Assembly: GCF_027595985.1 (NCBI RefSeq)
Contig: NC_073305.1
Coordinates: forward strand, 107,864,535-107,928,534
Direction: 5' to 3'
Source: Sorex araneus
Taxonomy: Eukaryota > Chordata > Mammalia > Eulipotyphla > Soricidae
DNA length: 64,000 bases
The translations under genes and the position numbers were made by a program. Position 1 is the first letter of the stretch; the number at the start of each line of letters is the position of its first letter. This document shows positions 1 through 62,602 of the stretch, one piece after another. Under the pieces are notes generated by a model, which was given only the letters and a program-made list of their open reading frames with translations, searched no databases and had not been told where the DNA came from.

Positions 1-206
1 TTGCCTTGCACGCAGCCGACCCAGGTTTGATTCTTCCGCCCCTCTCAGAGAGCCCTGCAAGCTACCGAGAGTATCTCGCCCACACGGCAGAGCCTGGCAA
101 GCTACCCGTGGTGTATCGGATATGCCAAACACAGTAACAACAAATGGAGATGTTACTGGTGCCCGCCCGAACAAATTGATGAGCAACAGGATGACAGTGA
201 CAGTGA
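1..206 (+). mobile_element. Composite SOR-RTE SINE (cut by window start)
   Basis: End of a SOR tRNA head (TTGCCTTGCACGCAGCCGAC, B box), then the RTE 5'-UTR segment (GCAAGCTACCGAGAGTATC … GATATGCC … CAGTAACAACAA), then the RTE 3' tip (GAGATGTTACTGGTGCCCGC) and a GACAGTGACAGTGA tail. Confidence 0.85.
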
Positions 207-361: not shown

Positions 362-1409
362 AACAAATGGGGAGAGGAAATGAATAGACACTCCTTAGAG
401 GAAAACAGGCAGATGGCCAGTAAGCACATGAAAAATGTTCAGCATCACTTATCAGAGCAATCCAAATCAAGATGGCAATGAGATACCATTTCACAACAGT
501 GAGAATGGCACATATCAAAAATAGTAGAAACAATCTGTGTTGGCAGGGATGTGGTGAAAAAGGAACTCTCATCCACTGCTGGTGGGAATGTTGTCTGGAA
601 CACTGAACATTGAATGTTCCACCCCTGTGGAAAACAGAATAGAAAGTTCTCAGTAAACTTAGAATTGAGCTGCAATATGACCTAGCAATTTCATTTTTGG
701 GCATCTGTCCCAGGACATAAAAACACTCTCTCAAAAGGACATATGCCATTATTCATTGCTGCACTCAGTACAATAGCTAAGATATAGAATCAACCTAGTT
801 GTCCAACGATAGGTGAACAACTATTGTTGTTATGAAGATGTAGTATTATACACCGTGGAATACTATGCAGCTTCAAGGAACAATGAAATAATGCAATTTG
901 CTGCAACATGGTTGGAACTAGAAGATATCATGTTGAGTGAACTAAGCCAGAAGAAGAAAGACAAACACAGGATGATCACACTTTTCTCTGGAATATAGAT
1001 GTATATTCCAGAGAAAATGGATGAGAAAATGTATAGTAAGAAAAGGAGGATGTTTAAATCACCCTTTACCACAGTGTTTAGAGAGAAGGACAGAGAAAGA
1101 AAGAAATCAAGGAGGAATGAGAAGTAATAGGTGAACAGTCATCAGAGCTTCAGTTGTACCAGTGACATGAGTGAGAGATAGTCATATATCCAAAACACAG
1201 ACTCAATAAAACTGGAAACATGAGATCTAAGCTGCAATCACTGAAATTTTGTAAAGTGCTTGTCAATTTGGCAGGCAGGGATGAGTGGGGATTGGGCTGA
1301 AGAAAGAATATGGGAACACTGGTGGAGGGATTGGTGTTGAAATATTATATGCCTAAAATTCAACTCTCAATAACTTTGTAAATCACACTTCTTTAATAAA
1401 ATATTTTTA
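362..1409 (+). mobile_element. L1 LINE, 5'-truncated, ORF2 end plus 3' UTR
   Basis: Bounded by AGAAAGTAATCTGTA/AGAAAATAATCTGTA (347-361 and 1410-1424). The first ~370 bases translate, with breaks, to the L1 ORF2 C-terminus. The rest is an L1 3' UTR ending GAACACTGGTGGAGGGATTG … TTTAATAAAAT. Confidence 0.88.
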
Positions 1410-1424
1410 AGAAAATAATCTGTA

Positions 1425-2261
1425 GGCATAAAGAAGTGAGCAACAGGAGAGGAACAGGAAGAGAGCTGGCAATCTGTTAATTGTTTAGTACCACTTAGAT
1501 AAAGCAGGAGGGTGTAAACAAGAAAATGTAAGGAATATTAAGACATAAATGAATGATTAGACACAACAAAATAGGTGTTTTAACACCTGGACTATCTCTT
1601 TGGCCTCTAATTTTTCCTTTTTCATAAGCCATTTCTTTTCCCTTGCATCTTTAACAAATTACACTGTAAACTCTCATTCTGTCTCTACATTCTATTGATT
1701 TATTCCTGTCCCCATTAGTAATTGTAATGAAGCTCTCTCTATTGTTCAGTTTTGCACCTCCCTATCTTTGTGTACTCTGTAGCGGACGCCAGCGCATGCT
1801 CACTGCCCTCCCCTCCATCCTCTGCTAATGAGGAGCCAGACTACGAGTTTTTAGAGGTGTCCAGCCCTCTGCCAAATGACTCAAAACAGCGCCGAGCAGC
1901 CTCTCTCCTGCTCTAAGGCGCAGTCCTGGTTCTCTAATCACATTTCAATGATCTCATTTTGCCAGTGATTGGTTTAGGTCTGGGCAAGCATCTTCATTCC
2001 AGTTAATGAAGCATACGGGAAAGTCAGTTGGGTTAATTCATAGAGACACGTGCTTGCTCTTAAAAATAACTTCATTAGGAAAAGCAGGCCTTATTCTTCT
2101 GCTGGGTGTGGCTATGTTTACATTTAATACCAAGACCTGCGTTAAATTTCCTCTGACCATGAGGAAATAGGAGTAAGAAATAGAACATAAGGATGGGAGA
2201 AAAGCAAGGGTCCTTGGTGAGGTTCCAGAAGCTAGCTAGCATGGAAGCCATCTTACCCTAC
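1425..2261. other. Single-copy stretch, no gene seen
   Basis: No repeat recognised. 1780-2110 is less AT-rich, with ATTA/TAAT motifs and intact-looking complexity; it is a candidate conserved non-coding element. 2446-2944 and 3091-3365 are likewise ordinary single-copy DNA. Confidence 0.5.
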
Positions 2262-2445
2262 TTGTTCTTGTTAAAGGACTAGCGTTCTAGCATAGGGCTG
2301 ACCTGGCTCAATTCCCCCCACACCACATATGGTCCCCTGAGCACAGATCCAGGAATAAAACCTGAGCAAAATTGGCTGTGACCCAGTCCTGGGACCCTTA
2401 CCCCATCCCAGCCAAAAATAAAATAAAATAAGAAAACAAATTTCC
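2262..2445 (+). mobile_element. Old SOR SINE
   Basis: Diverged: CCACATATGGTCCCCTGAGC body block and an AAAATAAAATAAAATAAG tail. Confidence 0.55.
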
Positions 2446-2944
2446 CTGAATGTTAATAAGTGTCCCATGTTTCAGTTGAACTGAGTTGTATGTTATCTTC
2501 CCTATGTTATGTTGCATCCTAACTAATCCACAAACCTTATTCTGCTCGGTCAATGACATTTTCTCTAAGCCTTATAACTTTGGGTTCGACCTCTGAGAAG
2601 CCACCAGAAAACCCCAGGCAATGATCTTCTCCTTTTTCTCCCTCTCTTCTCCCAAGAGGAAGGCCTGTCCCTGGGAGTGGACCCCTGTCTCAGCAGTGTG
2701 GCTGTGCTTAGACTTACCAAAGTGAATTCCCCCACAGACTCATCTTTCGGAGCTGAGTCTGGAGGTTCCTGCCACCCCGCTTCAAGTCTGAAGGCAGAGG
2801 TGACAGCAAGGTCAGCACCTAGCTGGAGGGCTGCAAAGAGACAGACAAACCAATAGCTGAGTAGTAGGTAGAGCAAAAACTACTTTCCCTTTGCCCTACC
2901 ATCACAGACAATGGTTAGATTGAAGGGTGAGTAGTCACACCTGC

Positions 2945-3085
2945 CAGTGCTTAAGGGCTTATTCCTGCTCTGCTCAGGGATTATTTCAGTGGATCCTCAG
3001 GGGACCATATGTAGTGCCAGAAATCAAACCAGGGTCTGCCTCATGCAAGGCAATCACCGTACCATTGTGTTATCTCTCTGATCCA
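2945..3085 (-). mobile_element. Old SOR SINE
   Basis: Antisense body block GGGGACCATATGTAGTGCC and head block CATGCAAGGCAATCACCG. Confidence 0.6.
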
Positions 3086-3365
3086 ATTCCAGATTTGTAA
3101 ACTTTTGCTTCATGGATAAAACCTCACTATCCCATAATAACATTCAATCTGGGGTGACCTGGTTTCCGCACCAGATGTGGACACTACTGGGCTTGTAACT
3201 TTTGTCTTATGTTCATTAAATGTCCCTACACACAGGATTATGTGTCTTTAACCTACCCGCCCAGCTTCATTCCGCTCACTTGCAGATGACACTGATGGTG
3301 TGTTCTCTGATGAAACCCTTCATTGTTCTCCAGTTCCTATCATCTTCCTAAAACTCTTTCTTTGT

Positions 3366-5381: not shown

Positions 5382-6123
5382 AAAATATCATTTTTATTTG
5401 GCAAAAAGTACTGCAAAGGTTGGCATGCTTTTTCTGATAAAAGATAGGCTTTTAGAAAACAAAACTATTTATATTCTTGAAATATGTGCATGCACATAAA
5501 CATATTATAAAATATCGTTTCTAAGATCAGTTAAAAAGATCCTCCACTACCCAGCCACCACCATGCTCCAGGCCGTTTTCAGAACACTCCAGCCAAGCAT
5601 CATGCATAGTGAAGCCCCACAGAACCAGGTAAAGCAGAACTTTGTGACCTTGGTCTCCAGGCTCAACGGGACCCAGAAACAGAGATCCTCTGCCTGCCTC
5701 CCTGAATCTCCAGTGCCCCAGGGATCAGACCCAGATGACCCCACCCTACCAGCGCCAGATAAATACCTCATCGGCCGACCTCGACTACCTCCACTACCCA
5801 GCCTCTGCCACGCTCCAGGCTGCTTTCCGGACCTCGAGGTCTCAAAGCAGGTACGTGACACATCATAAGACATTTAAAACCCATTTTCCATAATTACAGC
5901 ACCATATGTGATAAGGTTCTAATATGGTGTGAACCATGGGACAGCTGTAACGGTGATTAGAGGCCTCCCTAAAAGCCTCCATCCCTCTCGGAGAGCCCAG
6001 CAAGCTACCAAGAGTATCCTGCCCGCATGTCAGAGCCAGGCAAGCTACCTGAGGTATATTTGATATGCCAAAAACAGTAACAACAATGGGCCTCATTCCC
6101 CTAACACTGAAAGAGCCCCCAGT

Positions 6124-8870
6124 ATGGCAACATTAAGAAGGATGAGCAAGAAGAAGCTAATAAAATCTCAGGGATCAACTAGACTGCCCAAACGAAGAAG
6201 AACAAAAATGATTGTCTATACTTTCAACGCACGTACACTGGCATCAGAAGCATCCATCGAGGACCTGATGATGCAAGCACAGAAGATCAAGCACGATATC
6301 ATTGCTCTGCTGACGAGAAGGCATCAATCACATCATGCCATTTTCAACACTGGAGAACTCTTCCTTGGAACATTCAACAATACAGGTGTTGGTGGTGTTG
6401 GTGTCCTTGTCAACATGAACTTGACCATGAACATTGATTCATTCGAATGCTTGAACATGAATCTTACGCTGAACAGCTGTGGCTCACTGCCTGCAGTTTC
6501 TATCTTCTTCATCTATGCACCAACATCCAACTATGATGAAGAAGAAATGAAGAAGTTCTACATGGAGCTGGAGAAGTTCTATAAAGAAGACCACACCTTC
6601 TACAAGATCATTGTCAGTGATTTTAATGCCAAGATTGGACTGAGAAGGTCACCCGAAGAACTCCACATTGGGACCCATGGCCTAGAATGGAACGAACAGG
6701 GTGAGAGACTGTCTGAGTTCATCATGTTGACCAAGACCAGCCATGGTAACTCATAGTTCCAGAAGGCCAAATCTAAACGTAGGACATGGGAGTCTCCCGG
6801 TGGACAGTTCCACAATAAAATTGATCATATCATATTCAATCGACGGTTTTGCCTGACCGATGTCACTGTTATCCCAAAATTCCAAACAGGATTGTGCCAC
6901 CGTCTCCTCCATGCAAAATTCTACTCACAGAGTGGGAAAAAGGGACTGCAAAGTTTAAGTTTAAGAAGAGAACTCCCTTTAGGGCTGGAGCCATAGCACA
7001 GCAGGTAGGGCGTTTGTCTTGCACGCGGCCTATCCGGGTTCGATTCCCAGCATCCCATATGGTCCCCTGAGCACCGCCAGGAGTAATTCCTGAGTGCATG
7101 AGCCAGGAGTAACCCCTGTGCATCGCTGAGTGTGACACAAAAGGAAAAAAAATTAAATTAAATTAAAATAAAATAAAATAAAAGAAGAGAACTCCCAGAA
7201 TGACCACCAACTGGGAACTCTTCGGCACTATTGTGGCAACATGGGAAAATGCCGTCCTTGACATCGATGAGGAATACGATTGACTTGTTCAGTACCTCCA
7301 TGACTGCACAAGGAATGCTGAGAGTGGGAAAGCCACAAATAGACGCCTGTCTTCGGAAACTCTTGAGTTCATTCACCAACGTGGTTTGACACGAGCCTTA
7401 GGCAATCATAGGCTAACGTCCGAGCTCACAAAGCTGTGCAGAGAAGTGATAAAGTAAGACCTCAAAGAGAGAAGAACAGCAGTGTTGGACGATGTGGCAG
7501 AAGCCGGGAAAAGTATTTGAAACACTCTCCTGTCCTTCACCAACTACAAGACCAAGATTACTGCCCTCCTACGTCCTGATGGATCTATCACATCTTCCAG
7601 AAGGCAAATGGAGAGGATTATTCATGACATCTACTCGGATCTCTTTGACAGCCAAGTCCAGTTGCTCAAATACCAAATTCTGCAGGATGAGTATGTCCTT
7701 TCCAACATCCTCCCTTCCAAAATCCAATACACCATTTCATTGGTAAAGGTCCAGACAAGGCCAGACCCGAACACCTGAAGAATTTGCCGCCAATACTCGT
7801 CAATACACTGGCTCAGCTCTTTACATGCTACCTGTCCAAATGCAAGGTTCTCAGTGGAAAACCAGTAGGACCATTCTGTTGTACAAGAAGGGAGACATCC
7901 ACGACATTGGCAACTATCGCCCAATCTGCCTGTTGTCTGTTGTCTACAAGTTGTTCGCTTGTGTCATCCTGAATAGAATAGGCAGAACACTAGACAAAGG
8001 ACAGCCATGCGAGCAAGCAGGGTTCTGAAAAGGATTCAACATGATCCTTTTGGATATGTCGACCATATCCACACGGTGACCAAGCTCATTGAAGTTTCAC
8101 GAGAGTTCAAGATCCTGCTCTGTCTAGCATTCATCCATTTAAAGAAGACCTTTGATTCTGTTGATACTGAAGCGCTCATCTAGCCAAACAGGGCGTTCAT
8201 ACTCAGTACATCAAGATCCTCAATGAGCTGTATTATGGATTCACCACCAGGATCTCACCATTCTACAAGGAAGTGATCATTGATGTAAAGAGAGGGGTTC
8301 GGCAGGGTGATACCATTTCACCGAAGCTCTTCAGTGCCACCCTCAAGTACGTCATGGGCTGACTGGAATGGGAAGGAATGGGAGTGAATATAGATGGTCG
8401 GCAACTACACCACATCTGCTTCGATGATGATATCGTTCTCATAACACCAAACATTAGCCAATCTGCACAAATGCTGGCAGACTTCAACCACGAGTGTGGA
8501 AAGGTCGGACTAAAGCTGAATCTCAACAAGACGATGTTCATGAAAAACGAACTAGTCCCTGAAGCTCCATTTGCTCTCATTTGCCAAGACATCAAAAATC
8601 AGATGGGCTGGACACATAATGCGATTCAGAGATGACTGCTGGACTAGAGCTATTATGACTGGATTCCATGGGACGTCAAAAGACTGCATGGCTGCCCACC
8701 TAGGAAATGGTCAGCCTTCTTCATCAAAACCCTGAACGAACGGTTTGAGGCTCTTTGTGTTCCTGGAGTGAGCAGTTACCCTTGGGCTACTCTAGCACAC
8801 GACAGGGACGAATGGAGATGTTACTGGCACCCGCTCGAGCAAATTGAAGATCAACGGGATGTCAAGTGAT
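6124..8870 (+). pseudogene. Endonuclease/reverse transcriptase ORF of RTE copy 1, disrupted
   Basis: The protein would nick target DNA and reverse-transcribe the element RNA. A 210-residue endonuclease part is open at 6124-6756, starting MATLRRMSKKK. It contains the YAPTSNYDEEE and SDFNAKIG (endonuclease DFNA) motifs and THGLEWNEQGERLSEF. The expected catalytic-Glu motif reads ALLTRRH, so that Glu is missing. The frame stops at TAG 6754-6756. Later stops include TGA within the EEYD stretch near 7278. RT motifs follow: GNYRPICLLSVVYKL (about 7910), AFIHLKKTFDSV (about 8128-8163, His where Asp is expected), and HHICFDDDIVLI (about 8410, the FADD box changed to FDDD). The C-terminal stretch ending EQIEDQRD runs to within a few bases of the 3' end. 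It cannot make active enzyme. Confidence 0.88.
6978..7181 (+). mobile_element. Young SOR SINE inside RTE copy 1
   Basis: Perfect 15-bp duplication AAGAAGAGAACTCCC (6963-6977 and 7182-7196). A box TAGCACAGCAGGTAGGG, B box GGGTTCGATTCC, tail of AAATTAAATT/AAAATAAAAT repeats. It post-dates the RTE insertion. Confidence 0.95.
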
Positions 8871-9202
8871 ACAAGATCAGTTAAGTGTCTTGTAAGAATT
8901 CAGTTTCACTGTCAAATCAAATCTAAATTAGGAATGGGGAAAATGGATGGACTCAGCAAATAAATAGAACCAATAAGGCAATCACTTTCATTGCAGAACA
9001 TATAATAGGAAATTATCTAGGGGAACTGTGGATATCCAGCATTTCAACTTGGGTATTAAGGGAGTGCCATTTATGGGAATTAGGACTGCAGAAGATCAAA
9101 ATTAAATAATCCATATGTAGGATTAACTACCTGTCAGAAATATCCAACTTAAAAGTAAAAAATACAGTTGCTTTAATGACTCTTTAAAAGTCAAGACACT
9201 GG

Positions 9203-11785: not shown

Positions 11786-12117
11786 CAAAATCTTTCTAAG
11801 AATATACAGTTAAATATGTTTTGATGCATATCTAAGTTACTATAGATGTGCAATTCCTTAATTTCTTTATCTTCAAATGACCCTTTGGATTGAAATTTTA
11901 TAAAATATAGTGTCTAATATCTTGATCTAATGAGATCACTTGTACCAATCCACCTAGCTGCAAAAAAATACCAACATTTTACTTCCCTTATAATCTGCAA
12001 TTCCATCTAATCACTTTTTCCTAATTACTCTTTAGTCATTTTATAGAAATAATCTTTTAGTTATATAGTGCAATTTGTGTTAATACAGATTAGTTATATT
12101 CATTCTTAATGTCAAAA

Positions 12118-12360
12118 GCACAGCAGGTAGGGCCTTTGTCTTGCACGTGGCTGACCTGGTTCGATTCCTCCATCCCTCTCAGAAAGCCCGGCAAGCTACC
12201 AAAGAGCATCCCAACTGCATGGCAGAGCCTGGAAAGCTACCCGTGGCATATTTGATATGCCAAAAACAGTAACAACTAATCTGACAATGGAGATGTTACT
12301 TGTGCCCCTCTCCCCGCCCAGAGCAAATTGATGAACAACGGGACGACAGTGCTACAGTAC
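12118..12360 (+). mobile_element. Composite SOR-RTE SINE, slightly 5'-truncated
   Basis: Starts inside the tRNA A box (GCACAGCAGGTAGGG). Then B box GGTTCGATTCC, RTE 5'-UTR segment, RTE 3' tip with a 9-bp pyrimidine-rich insertion, and the ACAGTGCTACAGTA tail. Confidence 0.85.
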
Positions 12361-12838
12361 TACTAATTATATATTTTAATGCATATTAGCTTATTAAAAT
12401 GTGAAATTCTTAGTTGCACAGTTTTTATAAAAGTATATGTGTGTGAAGCCCACATATTTATCATGTTTTAAGATGTTTGTGTTTCACTCGAAATTTCCTT
12501 TTCAGTCAGTCCATCCCACCCCACTGTGGTTCTGAGATGGTTCATAAATATCTCACCATGTGCCCTTGTAGAGTTTCCTTCCACAATGAATAAAGATGAA
12601 CTTGGAAACACGTAGGATATTAGAAAATTATAAATTTATAGAAAGGGATGTTAAATGTCTTAACTAACTCCATCTTGTGTCCAAGAATCCATCTTACTGA
12701 ACTGTTAACTTCAAAAATGATACTACTTCACCAGCAATAACTGGTTTCCACTAGACATGATGTTTTCTGATAATAGTGCAATTTTTAAATTTTTTCCTAA
12801 GCAACCAAGCGTTTTTTTTTTATTAAAAATAAAATTTT

Positions 12839-20297: not shown

Positions 20298-21140
20298 GCA
20301 TTTAGTCATTTTCAGAACAGGTTTACCTACATCAGGTATAGAAACTAATTAGGAAATGTGGCAACAAAAGTACATTTTCAGTACTCTCTTTAATTAGAAT
20401 CTAGATAAAAACAGGGTTTGTGATATAAGTGATAACATTTGAATGAGATTTTTAATTTTGTATAGATTTTATCATTATTGATTTCTGGCTTTTATAACTA
20501 TAATGATAATGTAAGATATTAGCATTTTAAGAGTCTCTGTAGTGAGTCTAGGGGAATCACTTGCTCAATTTTAAAGCTTTCTGTTATAAAAATTAAACAG
20601 CTCTCATTTTTTTCCACATAAGCTTAGTGTTACAAGGTTAGTGAACTTGAAGATGTGTTAATAAGACTACTCGGACTATGAGTGATTAGGGAAGTTACTC
20701 CAATCTGAATTGTTTCCTGAGTTACAAGGAAAAGTCCATAAATGTCCAATTCTAAACAACCAGCTTGACCTATAGGTTCTAATATCACTTAAACTTTAAC
20801 AGAAATAGAACAAATACAAAGCACATTCTGAGTTCAAAGTGGGAGAAAAAGGAGTTGACATGCAATAGGCCTCTCAACTGCAGCTCTGTCAGGAGACATA
20901 CTAGTGATAACTTTCACGGCAAAAAGCACTTGAATGGCTCATAACAAGAATGTTCTGCATTATTTGTTCGTATTACTATAAGATTTTGTTATAATGAAAC
21001 CCCTGGTTGCCAGCTGGTGCCTTTGTAAAGACCAAAAAGTCCTGCTTGAGATGTACATCAAGCAGAGTGCCTGGTTTAGGAAACTAATTAGCATAGAGAT
21101 TCAGAAATGGGGAAGATTTTCAACTTTGAGTACATCCCTT

Positions 21141-21326
21141 TCTCTCCCTCCCTCCCTCCCTCCCTCCCTCCCTCCCTCCCTCCCTCCCTCCCTCCCTCCC
21201 TCCCTCCCTCCCTTCTTTCCTTCCTTCCTTCCTTCCTTCCTTCCTTCCTTCCTTCCTTCCTTCCTTCCTTCCTTCCTTCCTTCCTTCCTTCCTTCCTTCC
21301 TTCCTTCCTTCCTTCCTTCCTTCCTC
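21141..21326. repeat. (CCCT)n then (CCTT)n polypyrimidine tract
   Basis: About 70 bp of CCCT repeats change abruptly to about 115 bp of CCTT repeats, pure pyrimidine on the plus strand. Long open frames here are repeat artefacts. Confidence 0.99.
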
Positions 21327-21331
21327 CAAAC

Positions 21332-21460
21332 AAACCTATTCTGAGAGGCCCTAGACAGTACAGCTGCTGAGGCACTTCCTTTGCATGCTGATTTAATCTT
21401 TGCCACCACATATGAAATCTAGAGCCCTACTAGGAGTGACCCTATGGGTTGAACCAGGAG
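21332..21460 (+). mobile_element. Possible old SOR SINE
   Basis: CCACCACATATGAAATCTAG and GAACCAGGAGTAAG blocks only; diverged. Confidence 0.4.
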
Positions 21461-23356: not shown

Positions 23357-23705
23357 AAACCATGCTTTCACTCCAGGTGGCCCAAAAGGGGCGGATGAGA
23401 GCTTTCCCCACCCCAAGGGACCCAGCCCTGGCAGCCGACCTCCACTACCCAACCACTGCCACGCTCCAGGCTGCTTTCCACACACTCGGGCCGAGCCTCA
23501 CGCATGAGAGAAGTCCCATGGAACCCAGGAAATGCAGAACTCTGTGATCTTGGACTCTGGGCTCAAGGGGACCCGGGAGCAGAGATCCTCTGCCTGCTTC
23601 CCCCAGTCTCCAATGACCCAGGGATGACAACCATAGCCACCTTCTGCCGGTGCCGATAATCTCCTCATCTGCCATCCTCCAGAACTCATGGCTGCTCCTC
23701 CTGGA
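23357..23705 (+). mobile_element. RTE 5'-UTR fragment
   Basis: Shares with RTE copies 1 and 2 the stretch around CAGAGATCCTCTGCCTGC and the CCACGCTCCAGGCTGCTTTC region, about 85% by eye. It extends some 100 bp further 5' than copy 1, showing more of the family 5' end (…GAGAGCTTTCCCCACCCC…). It has no coding region and runs directly into L1 sequence at about 23712. Confidence 0.75.
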
Positions 23706-23711
23706 AGAGAG

Positions 23712-23972
23712 AATAAAAGTGAGGCCCCCTTTAAAGATACCTTTAGCTTCAATGTCATGGAGGGTTTTTCTAACCTTGTCTTCAATGTACCTGATGGATT
23801 CTCATCTGATGTTAAGGTCTTTAATTCTTTTTGATCTGACTTTTGTGCATGGTGTTAGGTAGAGGTCTGAGCCCATTGGGCACTAGACCATTGTATGACT
23901 GAAATGCAAGCATGAAAGTTTCTAAGTCTGTAACTACCTCACAGTGATTCACTAATAAAAAATTTTTTTAAA
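23712..23972. mobile_element. L1 fragment with 5' inversion
   Basis: 23712-23878 reads as L1 ORF2 on the minus strand (TTTTGATCTGACTTTTGTGC region). 23880-23972 reads as an L1 3' end on the plus strand, finishing CTAATAAAAAATTTTTTTA. Opposite orientations meeting head to head are the signature of twin priming during L1 insertion. Confidence 0.55.
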
Positions 23973-24030
23973 AAAGAATAAAATTGAAATCTGATAAGAA
24001 AAAAAAATGAGCCTCCCAAAACCATGCCAC

Positions 24031-24556
24031 TGGACTCTGCACCAAGGTGTTTTCACTCAGAGCGCCCAAGAGGGGGTGGGTGAGAGCCCTGCACTAAGGG
24101 ACCAAGCCCCAGCATTCGACCTCCACTAACCAACAGCTGCCACCTCCAAGGTGCTTTCCACACACTCGGGCCGAGCCTCACGCATAAGCGAACATATTAC
24201 TGGATCGCGCAGCTGCAACGTGGTGGCGCAACACATCATCATAAAGGGAAATATATATATATATATAAATACATATATATATATACACATACATATATGC
24301 TTCTCGGAGAGCCGAGCAAGCTACCAAGAGTATCGCGCATGCACAGAAGAGCCTGACAAGCTCCCCATGGTGTATTCGATATGCCAAATACAGTAAAAAT
24401 AACAGGTCTTATTCCCCTGACCCTGAAAGAGCCTCCAATCATTGGGAAAGATGATCAAGGAGAGGCTGCTAAAATCTCAGGTCTGGGACATATGGAGACG
24501 TTACTGGTGCCCGCTTGAGTAAATTGATGAGCAACAGGATGACAGTAATACAATGA
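24031..24556 (+). mobile_element. Internally deleted, non-autonomous RTE derivative
   Basis: The left part matches the RTE 5' UTR (GGGCCGAGCCTCACGCAT; then AGAGCCGAGCAAGCTACCAAG through CCAAATACAGTAAAAATAAC and the start of the ORF, ending AAAATCTCAGG at about 24480). It then jumps directly to the RTE 3' end (GGAGACGTTACTGGTGCCCG) and finishes with ACAGTAATACAATGA. A short AT microsatellite (24250-24300) and about 50 bp of unfamiliar GC-rich sequence (24190-24245) sit inside. It has no coding capacity and could only have moved with RTE enzymes. Confidence 0.75.
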
Positions 24557-24714
24557 TTTTTGATGAAAAGGAATGATTTTGTTTTTGGACTACATCTGGC
24601 AATGTTCAGTCATTACTCCTGTCTCTGCAATCAGGAATAACTCTTGGGGGTGTATGGGAGACCAAATGGACTGCTGAGTATCAAACCTGAGCTGGACACA
24701 TGTATCACGTGTCA

Positions 24715-27560
24715 TCCCATTGATCTTCGATTTGCTCAAGAGAGTTCCAGTAACGTCTCCATTTGTCCGGGTCGCATGCTAGTATAGCCTAGTGGTATTT
24801 GATTGCTCCAGGAACATGAAGAGCCTCAAACCGTATGATCAGAGTTTTGACAAAGAAGTCTGACCATCTCATAGGTGGGAGGCCAGGTGGTCTTTTGACA
24901 TCCCGTAGAGTCCAGTCAGTAACAGCTCTAGTCCAGCAGTCGACTCTAAATTGCATTACGTGTCCGGCCCATCTGATTTTCGATGCCTTGGCAAACAAGA
25001 CAGCGTCCCTGATTCTTGATCATCGATGGACGTCAGAACTCTGAATTCTTTCTTTCACTTGAGTGAAATGTGATATTCCAAGCAGAGATCTTTCAATTCC
25101 TCTTTGGGATACCCAAATAGCGTTCTTGTCTTGTTTTCGTAGGGCCCAGGTCTCTGAGGCATGTCAGTGCAGGAAGAACGGTTGAGTTGAAAAGATGCGT
25201 CCAGAGCCAGAGTTTCTTTGTCCTCTTAACAACTTCTTCGACACTCTTTAAGGTGTTTCCCCCCTGCTCTCTTCCATCCATGCAGTTCTGGTGCCAAGTC
25301 GTTCCTCATGTTGAGTTCTCAACCCAGATACACATAGCTGCTACATTCGGAAAAGTTCGTTCCATTGAGAGCAAATGGAACGTCAAGGACTAGTTCATAT
25401 TTCAAGAACATGGTCTTGGTGAGATTCAGCTGTAGTCGACCTTTCCACACTGGTGGTCGAAGTCAGTCAGCATTTGTGCTGTTTGGCTAATGTTTGGTGT
25501 TATTAGAATGATGTCATCAGCGAAGTAGAGGTGGTGTAGTTGCCGACTGTGTATCTTCACTCCCATTTCTTCCCATTCCAGTTGTCACATGACATTCTTG
25601 AGCGTGGCCTGAAGAGTTCCTGTGAAATGGTATCACCCTGCCAAACCCCTCTCTTTATGTTAAGATCACTTCCTTGTAGAATGGTGAGATCCTGGTGGTG
25701 AATCCGTAATACAGTTCGTGGAGGATGCTGATATACTGAGTTTGAACGCCCTGTTTGGCTAGGGCTTCAATGAGTGCTTCAGTCTCAACAGAATCAAAGG
25801 CCTTCTTTAAATGGATGAATGCTAGACAGAATGGCATCTTGAAATCTCGTGAAACTTCAATGAGCTTGGTCACCATGTGGATATGGTCCCATCGTGCTGA
25901 ATCCTTTTCAGAATCCGGCTTGCTTGCATGGTTGACCTTTGTCTAGTGTTCTGTATATTCTATTCAGGATGACTTGAGTGAAGATCTTGTAGATGATGGC
26001 CAGCAGCTAGATTGGGCGATAGTTGCTGATGTCGTGAATGTCTCCCTTCTTTTACAACAGAATGGTCCTACTGATTTTCCATTGGGATGGAACCTTGCAT
26101 TCAGACAGGTAGCATGTGAAGAGCTGAGCCAGTGTAATGACAAGTACTGGTGGAAGATTCTTCAGGTGTTCGGGTCTGACCTTGTCTGGACTGGGTGCTA
26201 TACGCGTCTTTACTGACAAAATGGTGTGTCGGATTTTGGAAGGGAGAATGTTGGAAACGACATATCCATTCTGCGGAATTAGGTATGTGGGTAGGTGGAC
26301 ATGGCTGTCGAAGAGATCCGAGTAGAAGTCATGAATAATCCTCTGCATTGCCCTTCTGGAAGATGTGATAGATCCATCAGGACGTCGGAGGGCAATGATC
26401 TTGGTCTTGTAGTTGGCAAAGGACAGGCAAGTGTTGGAAATACTTTTCCCAGCTTCTGCCACATCGGCCAACACTGCTGCTCTTCTCTCTTTGAGGTCTT
26501 CCTTTATTGCTTCTCTGCACAGCTTTGTGAGCTTGGATGTTAGCTTGTGATTGCCTGAGGCTCGTGCCAAACCACGTTGGTGAATGAGTTTGAGAGTTTC
26601 TGAAGACAGGCATCTGTTTGTGACTTTCCCACTCTTGGCATTCCTTGTGCAGTCATGGAGGTGCTGAACCAGTCGATCATATTCCTCGTCGATGTTGTCA
26701 AGGACGGCATCTTCCCACGTTGCCACAATAGTGCCAAAGAGCTCCCAGTGGTGCTCATTCTGGAAGTTCTCTTCTTAAACTTAAACTTTGCAGTTCTTTC
26801 TCCCCTCTCTGTGAAGTAGAATTTTGCACGGAGGAGACAGTGGTTCTATCCTGTTTGGAATTTTGGGACAACAGCGACATCGGTCAGGCAAAACCTTCGA
26901 TTGAATATGATGTGATCAATTTCATTGTTGAACTGTCCACCAGGAGACCCCCATGTCCAGTGTTTAGATTCGGCCTTCTGGAAATGCGAGTTACCATGGA
27001 TGGTCTTGGTCGACATAATGAACTCAGTCTCTCACCCTGTTCGTTCCATTCTAGGCCATGGGTCCCCATGTGGAGTTCTTTGGACGACCTTCTTGGTCCT
27101 ATGTTGGCATTAAAATTACCAACAATGATCTTGTACAAGGTGTGGTCTTCTTTATAGAACTTCTCCAGCTCCATGTAGAATGTCTCAATTTCTTCTTCAT
27201 CGTAATTGGATGTTGGTGCACAGACGACAAAGATAGAAACTGCCAGCAGTGAGCCACATCTATTTAAGCATAATCATCCGATTCGGGTTGTCAGGCATTC
27301 GAAATTATCAATGCTCTTGGCGAAGTTTGTGTTGACAAGGACACCGAGACCACCGACGCCTCTATTGTCACATATTCTAAGAAACAGTTCTTCTCCAGTG
27401 TCGAAAATGGCGTGATGTGATCGATGCCTTCTTATCTCGGTCAGACCAATGATGTCGTACTTGATCTTCTGCACTTGCATCATCAGGTCCTCGATGGATG
27501 CTTCTGATGCCAGCGTACGTGCATTGAAAGTACAGTCATTTTAGTTCTTCTTTGTTTTGG
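24715..27560 (-). pseudogene. Endonuclease/reverse transcriptase ORF of RTE copy 2, disrupted
   Basis: Fragments in several frames together cover the whole RTE protein. The endonuclease part (27483-27274) has GLTEIRRHRSHHAIFDTG with the catalytic Glu kept. It continues at 27174-26884, where the DFNA motif reads GNFNANIG (Asp to Asn). A 224-residue open stretch (26726-26052) covers the linker and start of the RT (MATWEDAVLDNIDEEYDRL... to SQWKISRTILL). RT motif A at 25876-25655 is AFIHLKKAFDSVETEA, with His in place of the first Asp. The catalytic box near 25525 is YFADDIILI, intact. The C-terminal part includes FAKASKIRWAGHVM (24998-24789) and ends EQIEDQWDD at the element tip. Frameshifts and stops make it inactive. 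Confidence 0.87.
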
Positions 27561-28082
27561 AAGTCTAGTTTGTACCTGAGATTTTATCAGCCTCTCCTTG
27601 CTCATTCTCCTTAACGCTGCCGTATTGGAGGCTCTTTCAGTGTCAAGGGAATGAAGTCCATTGTTGTTACTATTTTGGGCATATTGAATACACCACAGGT
27701 AGCTTGCCAGGCTCTGTCATGTGGGCGGGTACTCTCAGTAGCTTGCCGGGCTCTCTGAGAGGGATTGAGGTTTTAGGGCGGCCTCTAAGCGACCTTACAG
27801 GAGTTCTCATGGTTCACACCATATTTGAACCCCATCAAATATGGTGCAAAAATTATGGAAAATGGGTATTAAGTGTCTTCTGATGGTGCAAAAAGCTGCC
27901 TAGAGCTTGGTGGTGGCTGGATAGTGGAGGTAGTGGAGGTCGGCCGATGAGGTATTTATCTGGTGTTGATTGGGTGGGTCGTCAGGGTGTGATCCCTGGG
28001 GCGTCAAAGATTGGGGGAGGCAGGCAGAGGATCTCTGTTTCCAGGTCCCATTGAACCTGGAGTCCAAGGTCACCAAGTTCTG

Positions 28083-28140
28083 CTTTACCTGGTTTTGTGG
28101 GGCTTCACACATGTGTGAAGCCCCACAGAACCAGGTAAAG
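28083..28140. repeat. 58-bp near-perfect palindrome at the 5' end of RTE copy 2
   Basis: Two 29-bp arms (28083-28111 and 28112-28140) are reverse complements with one mismatch and no spacer; the centre is CACACATGTGTG. Both arms are RTE 5'-UTR sequence. Confidence 0.95.
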
Positions 28141-29376: not shown

Positions 29377-29626
29377 GCACAGTGGGTAGGGTGTTTGCCT
29401 TGCACGCGGCTGACCCGGGTTCGATTCCTCCATCCCTCTCAGAGAGCCTGGCAAGCTACCAAGAGTATCGCGCCCGCACGGCAGAGCCTGGCAAGCTCCC
29501 CATGGTGTATGCAATATGCCAAAAACAGTAACAACAAGTCTCACAATGGAGACGTTACTGGTGCCCACCTGAGCAAATCGATGAGCAACTGGATGACAGT
29601 GATACAGTGACAGTAATACAGTGATA
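29377..29626 (+). mobile_element. Composite SOR-RTE SINE
   Basis: tRNA-like head with GGGTTCGATTCC B box, RTE 5'-UTR segment from AGAGCCTGGCAAGCTACC to CAGTAACAACAAG, RTE 3' tip, and a long tail of ACAGTGAT/ACAGTAAT repeats. Confidence 0.88.
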
Positions 29627-30650: not shown

Positions 30651-30850
30651 CCCCAAACTCCTAGGTTGCTCAGTCAGTACATGGTTTAAAAAATATATTC
30701 GTTTCCTAACTTCAAGTTCAGGGTTTGTGTTGCTCTTCCACAGTAAGAACCATGATGTAGAAGATGCATCTTGAAGTGGCATACAGAATGGACAAGATGG
30801 GAAGGAGGCCAGAGATGGGGAGATGAGTATAGAGAATATTTTGTGCATGT

Positions 30851-31344
30851 CCCTCCCTCCCTCCCTCCCTCCCTCCCTCCCTCCCTCCCTCCCTCCCTCC
30901 CTCCCTCCCTCCCTCCCTCCCTCCCTCCTTCCTTCCTTCCTTCCTCCCTCCCTCCCTCCCTCCCTCCCTCCTTCCTTCCTTCCCTCCTTCCTTCCTTCCT
31001 TCCTTCCTCCCTCCCTCCCTCCCTCCCTCCCTCCCTCCTTCCTTCCTTCCTTCCTTCCTTCCTTCCTTCCTTCCTTCCTTCCTTCCTTCCTTCCTTCCTT
31101 CCTTCCTTCCTTCCTTCCTTCCTCCCTCTCTCCCTCCCTCCCTCCCTCCCTCCTTCCTTCCTTCCTTCCTTCCTTCCTTCCTTCCTTCCTTCCTCCCTCT
31201 CTCCCTCCCTCCCTCCCTCCCTCCCTCCCTCCCTCCCTCCCTCCCTCCCTCCTTCCTTCCTTCCTTCCTTCCTTCCTTCCTTCCTTCCTTCCTTCCTTCC
31301 TTCCTTCCTTCCTTCCTTCCTTCCTTCCTTCCTTCCTTCCTTCC
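30851..31344. repeat. (CCCT)n/(CCTT)n mosaic polypyrimidine tract, about 495 bp
   Basis: Alternating blocks of CCCT and CCTT units with no purine on the plus strand except at the borders. It ends exactly at the tail side of the minus-strand SOR at 31345, so it probably grew from that SINE tail. Confidence 0.99.
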
Positions 31345-31508
31345 GTTGTTGTTTTGGGGGCACACCCGTAAATGCTCAGGGGTTACTCTTGGCTTCGCAC
31401 TTAGGAATCACTCTGGGTTGTGTTTGGTGGACCGTGTGGGATTTCGATATGCCAACGCAAATCAGCCACGTACAAAGTGCCTTACCTGCTGTCCTATTGC
31501 TCCAGCCC
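31345..31508 (-). mobile_element. SOR SINE adjoining the long pyrimidine tract
   Basis: Antisense: GGGGCACACCCGTAAATGCT to TCCTATTGCTCCAGCCCC. Its tail side abuts the (CCTT)n tract. Confidence 0.8.
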
Positions 31509-32145: not shown

Positions 32146-32399
32146 AGAGACTGGAGCGATAGCACAAGAGATAGGGCGTTTGCCTTGCATGTGGCTGAGC
32201 CGGGCTTGATTCCTCCGTCCCTCTCAGAGAGCCCAGCAAGCTATTGAGAGTATCCTGCCCACACAGCAGAGCCTGGCAAGCTACCCATGGCATATTCGAT
32301 ATGCCAAAAACAGTAACAACAAGTCTCACAATGGAGACCTTATTGGTGCCCGTTCGAGCAAATAGATGAACAATGGGACGACAGTGCTAACAGTGCTAA
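32146..32399 (+). mobile_element. Composite SOR-RTE SINE
   Basis: Complete head starting CTGGAGCGATAGCACA, RTE 5'-UTR segment, RTE 3' tip with GAGCAAATAGATGAACAATG, and an ACAGTGCTA repeat tail. Confidence 0.88.
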
Positions 32400-32404
32400 T
32401 TAAA

Positions 32405-37094: not shown

Positions 37095-37220
37095 TACCCA
37101 TGGCATATTTGATATGCCAAAGCCAGTAACAACAAGTCTCACAATGGAGACGTTACCGGTGCCCGCTTGAGCAAATCGATGAGCAACAGGATGACAGTGA
37201 TACAGTGACAGTGACAGTGA
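37095..37220 (+). mobile_element. Composite SOR-RTE SINE, strongly 5'-truncated
   Basis: Only the end of the RTE 5'-UTR segment (TACCCATGGCATATTTGATA), the 3' tip and a GATACAGTGACAGTGACAGT tail remain. 5' truncation is typical of target-primed reverse transcription. Confidence 0.8.
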
Positions 37221-41305: not shown

Positions 41306-41520
41306 ACAACATGATACTTCTAAAAAAATCAAGAAATGAGCTTCAATTCGATCCAGCAATTCTGCTTCTCAGCATCTATCCCAAATGTCCCCAAACAGTA
41401 TTTTGATGAGATTTCCTATATTCATTTGCAGAATTATTCACTATAGCCATGATCTAGAAACAACCCAAATGTCCAAGAACAGATGACTGGATAAAGAATT
41501 TATGGTATGTATACTGAATG

Positions 41521-41760
41521 GGCTGGAGCGATAGCACAGTGGTAGGGCGTTCGCTTTTCACGCAGCCGACCCATGTTCGATTCCTCTGCCCCTCTCAGAG
41601 AGCCTAGCAAGCTACCGAGAGTATCGTGCCCGCACAGCAGAGCATGGCAAGCAACCTGTGGCATATTGGATGTGCCAAAAACAGTAACAAATAAGTCTCA
41701 CAATCGAGAGATGTTACTGGTGCCCGCTCGAACAAATCGATGAGCAACAGGATGGCAGTG
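41521..41760 (+). mobile_element. Composite SOR-RTE SINE inserted into an L1
   Basis: Bounded by the 12-bp duplication GTATACTGAATG/GCATACTGAATG at 41509-41520 and 41761-41772. Full head, RTE 5'-UTR segment and RTE 3' tip are present, ending GATGGCAGTG. The L1 3' region continues on both sides, so the composite SINE is younger than that L1. Confidence 0.92.
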
Positions 41761-42246
41761 GCATACTGAATGGAATAGTATTCAGCTATAAGAAAAGACA
41801 AAATTATGCAACTTGCTTCTTCTACTTGTATGTAACTGAACGGCATCATGCTGAATGACATCAGAAGGAGAGGGACAGATACAGAATGATCTCCCTCATT
41901 TGTGGATTATAAAGAAACATAGTAAGGGAGCAACAAATGACTGAAGGCAACAGATCTGGAATGTTGGCCTACAGAACCTGGGGAGAGGTGGATGGGAGGG
42001 GTCCTTGGGGCATTTGTGGAGGAAAGTAGGCACTCTGGTGGAGGGAGTGGTATGGCAATGATGTACACATGAAACCACATCATTAACAATATTGTAAACA
42101 ACAGTGATTCTATTTAAAAGATTGAAATATAATCAATAAAATATACCTATGTATCTCAATGATTTTTTTTAAAGTTTTAGAGTTTATTTTATTGGATAAA
42201 AATTGAAAGTATGTCTTCAATAGACATATTTAGTTGAAAATTAATT

Positions 42247-49685: not shown

Positions 49686-49818
49686 CCCACTTATAAGATA
49701 GAGTACATAAAAAACATAAAATGTGGGGGAAAAGAGAGTAGGATTGGATCTTCTGCAATGCTCTTGAGTCTTACATGTTTTAAAATTAAAATGAGAAATA
49801 CACTTAATACTTTAGATG

Positions 49819-50069
49819 GGCTGGAGCAATAGCACAGCGGGTAGGGTGTTTGCCTTGCATGCGGGTCTACCCGGGTTCGATTCCTCTATCCCTCTTGGAG
49901 AGTCCGGCAAGCTACCGAGAGTATCTCACCCACATGGCAGAGCCTGGCAAGCTACTCGTGGCATATTCGATATGCCAAAAACAGTAACAGCAAGTCTCAC
50001 AATGGAGATGTTATTGGTGCTCACGTGAGCAAAATGAAGAGCAATGGGATGACAGTGACACTGACAGTA
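49819..50069 (+). mobile_element. Composite SOR-RTE SINE
   Basis: Bounded by the duplication ACTTTAGATG/ACTTTAAATG (49809-49818 and 50070-50079). GGCTGGAGCAATAGCACAGC head, RTE 5'-UTR segment, RTE 3' tip, and a GACAGTGACACTGACAGTA tail with no poly(A). Confidence 0.92.
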
Positions 50070-51014: not shown

Positions 51015-51185
51015 TGGGGCTGGAGCGATAGCACAGCGGGTAGGGCGTTTGCCTTGCACGCGGCCGACCCGGGTTCGATCCCCGGCATCCCATATAGTCC
51101 CCCAAGCACTGCCAGAAGTAATTCCTGAGTGCAAAGCCAGGAGTAACCCCTGAGAATCGCTGGGTGTGACCCAAAAAGGAAAAAA
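51015..51185 (+). mobile_element. Young SOR SINE in the tail of an ORF-less L1 derivative
   Basis: Duplication AAATTTAAAAAACC (51001-51014, and near-identical at 51186-51200). Almost consensus sequence. Confidence 0.95.
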
Positions 51186-62425: not shown

Positions 62426-62602
62426 GGGCTGGAGTGATAGTACAGTGAAGTAGGGTGCTTGCCTTTCATGCAAGCAGCCTGAGTTCATTCCCGGCACCCC
62501 ATATAGTTCCTGAGTCTGCCAGGAGGGATCCTTAAGATCCTTACTCCCAGGAAGGAGTAAGCCTTGAATACCATGGTGTGTAGCCCCAAACAAAAACAAA
62601 AT
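62426..62602 (+). mobile_element. SOR SINE
   Basis: GGGCTGGAGTGATAGTACAG head, GGCACCCCATATAGTTCCTG body, CCAAACAAAAACAAAA tail. Confidence 0.82.

What the first reader, a model, noticed from the sequence alone, without database searches (positions are those of the whole stretch)
41521..41760. Composite SINE family: SOR tRNA head + RTE 5'-UTR segment + RTE 3' tip
Seven copies (1-206, 12118, 29377, 32146, 37095, 41521, 49819) share one architecture. A SOR-type tRNA head (~75 bp) is followed by ~105 bp matching the RTE 5' UTR (5985-6095 of copy 1), then ~62 bp matching the last bases of the RTE. Tails are ACAGTG/ACAGTGAT repeats, not poly(A), as in RTE-clade elements. The head supplies a pol III promoter and the tail should recruit the RTE enzyme. 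This parallels the Bov-tA/BovB pair of ruminants, but built on a LINE apparently acquired from a parasite. I do not know whether this family has been described.
Basis: partly seen in the sequence, partly recalled or inferred. Interest (0 to 1): 0.9.

Follow-up and report, generated by a model that had tools for sequence, protein, structure and literature searches.

The report
Shrew SINE built from nematode-type LINE
The repeat is a real and very common shrew mobile element that joins a shrew tRNA-type promoter to both ends of a LINE whose closest known relatives are in parasitic nematodes; it is a striking but not unprecedented kind of genomic parasite-of-a-parasite.

Summary
Seven copies in the window share one architecture: a ~65-nt head like the shrew SOR SINE (lost at 37095, cut in copy 1), ~110 nt matching the RTE 5' UTR (5977-6086), a short linker, ~55 nt matching the RTE end, and ACAGTG-type tails. 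With the SINEs masked, middle and 3' part significantly match only the three RTE-derived elements. The 3' part is not UTR: it is the last ~18 codons of the RTE ORF, recognisable in strongylid nematode proteins, so that part moved from RTE to SINE. In the host genome both junctions recur exactly 8,632 and 5,281 times (controls 0). A 200-kb sample holds 21 copies, suggesting ~250,000. Target duplications exceed chance. Internally deleted RTEs (N1, N2) share 3' variants with the SINE, moderately supporting RTE, then bipartite RTE, then SOR-head gain. RTE-driven mobility and pol III transcription are inferred. The architecture matches Bov-tA and hagfish SINEs: a new member of a known kind. My paper searches found no description, but Repbase, SINEBase and Kojima 2018 could not be read. 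Side finding: an old RTE copy with an open 1049-codon frame.

The parts
41521..41760 (+). SINE copy of the finding; exact 11-nt target-site duplication ATACTGAATGG at 41511-41521 and 41763-41773; subfamily with AATAAGTCTCACAATNGAGAGA-type linker
41521..41584 (+). SOR (tRNA-type) head of the 41521 copy, A box TAGCACAGTGG
41590..41690 (+). segment from the RTE 5' UTR in the 41521 copy (matches 5983-6083, 86%)
41691..41707 (+). linker region (ATAAGTCTCACAATCGA)
41708..41759 (+). segment from the 3' end of the RTE ORF
1..206 (+). SINE copy cut by the window edge; linker deleted
12117..12362 (+). SINE copy, tail type ACAGTGCT; head 5'-shortened
29377..29626 (+). SINE copy, tail ACAGTGATACAGTG; head 5'-shortened
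32146..32403 (+). SINE copy, tail type ACAGTGCT
37095..37220 (+). 5'-truncated SINE copy without head
49818..50066 (+). SINE copy with full head
5609..8874 (+). RTE copy A (broken; alignable part, true 5' end not fixed), interrupted by a SOR at about 6978-7181
5977..6086 (+). 5' UTR segment of RTE A shared with the SINE
8812..8864 (+). 3' end of RTE A ORF shared with the SINE (encodes WRCYWHPLEQIEDQRD)
24701..28108 (-). RTE copy B (broken); shared segments at 27769-27661 and 24762-24710
24302..24553 (+). RTE-N1: internally deleted RTE, 5' UTR plus ORF start fused to the 3' end
51016..51180 (+). young SOR SINE whose head resembles the composite head

Best explanation
It is a composite tRNA-type SINE of a shrew. 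The SOR head supplies an internal pol III promoter. The rest is a bipartite, internally deleted copy of a nematode-type RTE LINE (RTE1_Sar): a 5' UTR piece joined by a short linker to the last codons of the ORF and an ACAGTG-type tail. The 3' end of the SINE RNA would be recognised by the RTE protein, which copies it by target-primed reverse transcription and leaves target duplications (11-15 nt in the clearest copies). Likely origin: an RTE lost its interior and became a non-autonomous element; then a SOR head was joined at GATTCC, by template switching or recombination. Shown: anatomy, junctions genome-wide, coding origin of the 3' part, target duplications, abundance, divergence like that of RTE copies A and B. 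Inferred: pol III transcription, use of the RTE enzyme, mechanism and order of fusion. Taken from the literature: horizontal transfer of the LINE.
For: Significant matches restricted to RTE elements. The 3' part of all seven copies has its best protein match at the C-terminus of the same Nippostrongylus RTE protein P0083 (...DEWRRYWRPLEQIDDQRDD): five at E 1e-4 or better, 49819 at 0.024 and 12117 at 0.032; head plus middle of the same copies, an internal control, reach 0.056 at best (tblastn, very small database). In RTE copies upstream UTR, middle and downstream are contiguous. Exact junction counts 8,632 and 5,281, controls 0. 21 copies in 200 kb. Flanking repeats scoring 8 or more in 11 of 29 copies against 1.5% of 812 mismatched flank pairs. 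SINE and N1/N2 share 3' variants against the RTE majority (in-window version). Non-CpG K2P: SINE copies of the window 0.130 mean pairwise, RTE A to B 0.128. Exact B box GGTTCGATTCC in 3 of 6 headed window copies, A box at the right place by script in 2 of 6, no internal TTTT in 5 of 6.
Against: No experiment. 15 of 29 copies have no flanking repeat scoring 7 or more. No significant RNA fold (typed consensus: z -1.35, 20 of 200 shuffles as good) and no net covariation support (term +0.67). The 41521 copy itself has an internal TTTT. Shared variants with N1/N2 are few, N2 rests on two copies, and the SINE middle consensus is nearer the RTE majority (115 of 131) than N1 (97 of 125) or N2 (103 of 131), so the exact donor is open. 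Most RTE copies used were chosen by protein score, which biases the RTE majority to young copies.
Confidence: 0.9

Rival explanations
1. The RTE took its 5' UTR segment from an older shrew SINE, instead of the SINE taking it from the RTE.
For: The segment is non-coding and no nematode DNA could be searched, so its presence in nematode RTEs is untested; translated comparison of the 120 listed nematode-type proteins with the shared middle of RTE A and B gave nothing better than E 0.17, as expected for non-coding DNA.
Against: In 11 of 14 RTE copies the segment lies contiguous with other RTE 5' UTR sequence on both sides, without head, linker or tail of the SINE. Of 40 middle hits in 264 kb, 0 have a SOR head without an RTE tip. 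The 3' part is conserved coding sequence shared with nematodes.
Confidence: 0.07
2. The SINE is mobilised by L1, as SOR probably is, and the RTE parts are passengers.
For: The head comes from SOR, and L1 can mobilise varied RNAs (established knowledge, not from a call).
Against: None of the 34 correctly oriented copies displayed ends in poly(A); most end in ACAGTG-type repeats; tail and 3' end match RTE derivatives.
Confidence: 0.05
3. Separate fragments of SOR and RTE lie next to each other by chance or by nested insertion.
For: SOR and RTE are both dense in this genome.
Against: Identical junctions recur 8,632 and 5,281 times, with flanking repeats around the whole unit.
Confidence: 0.01

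Closest known systems
Bov-tA / Bov-A2 with BovB (ruminants)
   Same: tRNA head plus RTE-clade tail in Bov-tA; Bov-A2 is listed with the 5' end of BovB in the promoter column; the LINE was horizontally acquired (PMC3747384 Table 1 passage; PMC8620236 passages)
   Different: other RTE lineage (nematode RTE1_Sar type), SOR head and not tRNA-Glu, ACAGTG-type tail
SINE1-1_EBu and SINE2-9/2-10_EBu (hagfish)
   Same: small-RNA head followed by bipartite RTE sequence (5' UTR plus 3' end), explained through an internally deleted RTE (PMC7245038 passages)
   Different: other host, other RTE family; 7SL-derived or tRNA plus UCON3 parts there
RTE1_Sar (Sorex araneus)
   Same: the donor LINE; nearest named proteins are in strongylids
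   Different: autonomous LINE; the paper's main text has 0 occurrences of a word beginning with SINE (PMC6542046; supplements not read)
SOR / Sor SINE (shrews)
   Same: head, 63 of 65 comparable majority columns
   Different: SOR has its own body and an A-rich end (read) and lacks the RTE parts

Membership tests
tRNA-type SINE | tRNA-related 5' head with A and B boxes | tested here: met
   boxes are decayed in some copies. ARAGORN calls tRNA-like structures in two SOR-like places (Ala at 51021, Glu at 62430), none in a composite copy
tRNA-type SINE | short element dispersed in many copies with target duplications | tested here: met
tRNA-type SINE | pol III transcription | not testable with these tools
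   only boxes and the lack of TTTT were looked at
RTE-dependent SINE with bipartite RTE body (as in Bov-A/Bov-tA, hagfish SINEs) | piece of the 5' region and the 3' end of one RTE | tested here: met
RTE-dependent SINE with bipartite RTE body (as in Bov-A/Bov-tA, hagfish SINEs) | 3' microsatellite-like, non-poly(A) tail like the LINE | tested here: met
   the RTE majority, dominated by young copies, has a somewhat different repeat (ACAAGTG)
RTE-dependent SINE with bipartite RTE body (as in Bov-A/Bov-tA, hagfish SINEs) | mobilised by the RTE protein | not testable with these tools
   inferred from the shared 3' end
SOR SINE family | SOR body after the head | tested here: not met
   diverges after GATTCC; a chimera, not a SOR subfamily
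RTE1_Sar relatives | RT/endonuclease protein similar to strongylid RTE1_Sar proteins | tested here: met
   P0001 and P0002 (no organism shown) 65 and 64%; near-full-length Ancylostoma, Necator and Haemonchus proteins 60-61%

The most novel reading that the evidence does not exclude
An undescribed SINE family of about a quarter of a million copies, most of whose length descends from a LINE that reached shrews from a parasitic nematode; the LINE spawned several internally deleted non-autonomous families before one captured a SOR promoter, so the SINE dates the transfer and shows how a foreign LINE is itself parasitised.
Probability: 0.35. Interest if true: 0.6.

Novelty: new member of a known kind. 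Interest (0 to 1): 0.42.

Why it matters
It shows a further mammalian case, like BovB and Bov-tA, in which a horizontally acquired RTE LINE was captured by a host tRNA-type SINE and amplified massively. The main text of the paper on this LINE's transfer does not mention a SINE, so the DNA traceable to that transfer may be larger than reported. Presence or absence of the SINE across shrews and moles would help to date the transfer.

Tried and rejected
Ribozyme or other known RNA in the element: no Rfam match at gathering score in the window; three sub-threshold, chance-like hits (E 5-8.7) in 41400-41800. Conserved RNA structure: not supported. Copy 1 as an ancestral direct junction: rejected; its exact junction occurs twice in the genome against 8,632 for the linker form (patterns of 28 and 36 nt). 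In one search, 26 of 27 readable copies keep the linker, some with changes; 8 of 35 rows were not readable by the script, one because L005 was taken on the wrong strand. Linker as foreign filler: left open; it may be RTE 5' UTR with a small deletion. Headless precursor at L032: rejected, it carries a head. Pfam scan of three ORFs gave nothing, one of them on the wrong strand. Scans of viral contigs and plasmids: no match. Paper searches on the family; nothing listed describes it, as far as titles, abstract starts and the passages I opened show. Kojima 2018 (PMC5786205; title seen in a reference list, content only recalled: LINE 5' parts in SINE bodies) is not held. Repbase, Dfam and SINEBase could not be searched.

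Full report
OBSERVATION. A BLAST of 41521-41760 against the window finds the seven named places. Alignment gives one architecture: head, RTE middle, linker, RTE 3' part, tail. Copy 37095 lacks the head; copy 1 is cut by the window edge. With all seven copies masked and a typed consensus as query, the middle hits RTE copy A (5977-6086, 89%), RTE copy B (27769-27661, 88%), the internally deleted RTE-N1 (24302-24402, 84%) and one weak place (26.5 bits); the 3' part hits the same three elements only (N1 93%, A 87%, B 85%); the head hits SOR copies. Shuffled queries (100 each) reach at most 27.4 bits for the head, 31.9 for the middle and 30.1 for the 3' part.

HOST. The window lies in a genome of 2,405,902,106 bases in 65 contigs. 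Soricidae-directed SINE oligos from PMC8608897 (passages read) match the window with up to 3 mismatches 13, 25 and 8 times; one mononucleotide shuffle gives 0 for each. No tool named the species; a shrew close to Sorex araneus is my reading.

THE LINE. A read-through query of the RTE finds 559 proteins at E <= 0.001 among 7915 candidates; 120 are listed, and the listed rows that show an organism name are strongylid nematodes (Ancylostoma, Necator, Haemonchus, Nippostrongylus, Heligmosomoides); the two best rows have no name. This agrees with RTE1_Sar, reported as horizontally transferred between a strongylid and S. araneus (PMC6542046: abstract, passages and section 10 read); the authors leave the direction partly open. 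I did not test transfer myself.

DIRECTION. Nematode RTE proteins end in sequences such as RDEWRRYWRPLEEVDDQRDDR. In all seven SINE copies the best match to the 120 proteins is the C-terminus of P0083 (Nippostrongylus) in the 3' part: five at E 1e-4 or better, 49819 at 0.024, 12117 at 0.032; the best match in head plus middle, an internal control, is 0.056. The 3' part thus derives from LINE coding sequence. The SINE, like N1, lacks one base relative to RTE A and B near the end, which takes the stop codon out of frame. For the 5' UTR segment direction is less firm. Of 14 RTE copies examined (A, B, L029-L040), 8 carry upstream UTR, middle and downstream UTR contiguous and in the ORF's orientation (A, B, L030, L031, L032, L034, L038, L039); 3 carry the same contiguous block inverted relative to the ORF (L033, L036, L037), as after a 5' inversion; in 3 it was not seen at the RTE 5' end (L029, L035, L040; middle hits in L035 and L040 lie in what look like SINE copies). 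Of 40 middle hits in 264 kb, 23 have SOR head and tip, 4 are truncated with tip, 13 lie in RTE or RTE-N context, 0 have a SOR head without tip.

GENOME SCALE. Exact 36-nt junction of the two RTE parts: 4313 + 4319 = 8,632, control 0. Exact 31-nt head-middle junction, two positions degenerate: 2654 + 2627 = 5,281, control 0. The copy-1 form without linker: 2, control 0. That is 105 per Mb, or about 250,000 in the genome (Poisson 95% about 156,000-386,000, my arithmetic, if C1-C3 are representative). The window has 7 in 64 kb.

RETROTRANSPOSITION. Of 29 copies (17 from the sample, 5 from the window, 7 fetched by likeness to 41521), 14 have a flanking repeat scoring 7 or more and 11 score 8 or more; mismatched pairs give 5.9% and 1.5% (812 pairs). 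The 11 best repeats are 11-15 nt long. The 41521 copy has an exact 11-nt duplication. Tails are mostly ACAGTG, ACAGTGAT or ACAGTGCT repeats, none poly(A). Copies 12117 and 32146 share a GAACAAYGGGACGACAGTGCT variant; 41521 falls with L002-L004 and L006-L008, which were fetched by likeness to it.

INTERMEDIATES. Besides RTE copies there are internally deleted RTEs: N1, joining about position 774 of my A numbering to 3187, and N2, about 725 to 3163. Script classes in the 200 kb are 4 and 4; I reassign L017_2759 and L023_3014 from N2 to N1; the tip paired with L010_5500 is 196 nt away and doubtful; L016_6708 was classed as RTE, although one search shows a tip 9 nt from it, so it is probably N1. 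N1 (10 copies), N2 (2 copies) and SINE share 3' variants absent from the RTE majority, though the SINE middle is nearer the RTE majority. I read this as a non-autonomous lineage from which the SINE arose, moderately supported. Divergence (non-CpG K2P to own majority): SINE full length mean 0.084, n=28; middle segment: SINE mean 0.063, n=40; N1 mean 0.128, n=10; RTE 0.005-0.038 for eight copies picked by protein score and 0.10-0.24 for seven others, the top value being L016_6708. By this measure N1 is older than the SINE and some RTEs are younger.

MECHANISM. Exact B boxes are seen in 3 of 6 headed window copies and A boxes at the right place in 2 of 6; the script's A-box pattern missed or misplaced it elsewhere; the 41521 copy has an internal TTTT. 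Transcription, RTE dependence and template switching are inferences from knowledge of SINE/LINE pairs (PMC3747384 passages) and of template switching by RTE-type LINEs (PMC4476161 passages).

KNOWN KIND. PMC7245038 (passages) states that RTEs often give internally deleted bipartite elements that sometimes acquire small-RNA heads. PMC3747384 Table 1 (passage) lists Bov-tA, Bov-A2, RTESINE1, MAR4 and RTE1-N1_LA; its main text has 0 occurrences of Sorex or shrew. Hence new member of a known kind; whether it is named in Repbase is unknown.

SIDE FINDING. L039 (G000:C12:345154239-345157115, minus) is the only long match among 55 rows without an internal stop; two short fragments also have none. It has an open frame of 1049 codons with RVT_1 and endonuclease domains. 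Its nearest other match in a 701-nt search is 87% (40 of 8870 candidates scored). Against the majority of 13 other copies it shows 3 stop-making among 343 single changes, while the 13 show 96 among 1901. Its nonsynonymous/synonymous counts (215/125; 194/87 against older copies) are not lower than in dead copies, so protein-level constraint is not shown. It could be a chance survivor, a recent source or a co-opted gene.

Noticed in passing
L039 (G000:C12:345154239-345157115, minus strand): An RTE copy as diverged as dead copies (nearest match 87%) but with an open frame of 1049 codons and RT plus endonuclease domains; nonsynonymous/synonymous counts are not reduced. Chance, recent activity or co-option are all open.
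   Followed up: partly
window 24302-24553; L010, L012, L017, L022, L023 and others: At least two kinds of internally deleted non-autonomous RTE (N1, N2), apparently common in the genome.
   Followed up: partly
window 6963-7196: A SOR SINE sits inside RTE copy A; AAGAAGAGAACTCCC on both sides looks like its target duplication (read).
   Followed up: no
window 28100-28140: The 5' end of RTE copy B carries a 26-nt inverted repeat of its own sequence, as after a 5' inversion.
   Followed up: no
L033, L036, L037: The 5' UTR block of these RTE copies is inverted relative to the ORF, suggesting that 5' inversions are common in this RTE.
   Followed up: no
window 20994-21411 and 30686-31371: Long purine/pyrimidine (GAAG/GGGA-type) microsatellite tracts that read as long KEGR/PSLPPS frames.
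   Followed up: no
window 23420-24200: Two further pieces resembling the far 5' UTR of the RTE (23439-23679 by BLAST; about 24115-24190 by eye), with another repeat between them.
   Followed up: no
L030-L034, L036-L038: Eight RTE copies have 5' UTR middles within 0.5-4% of their majority, younger than the SINE copies sampled; the RTE majority tail repeat is ACAAGTG.
   Followed up: partly
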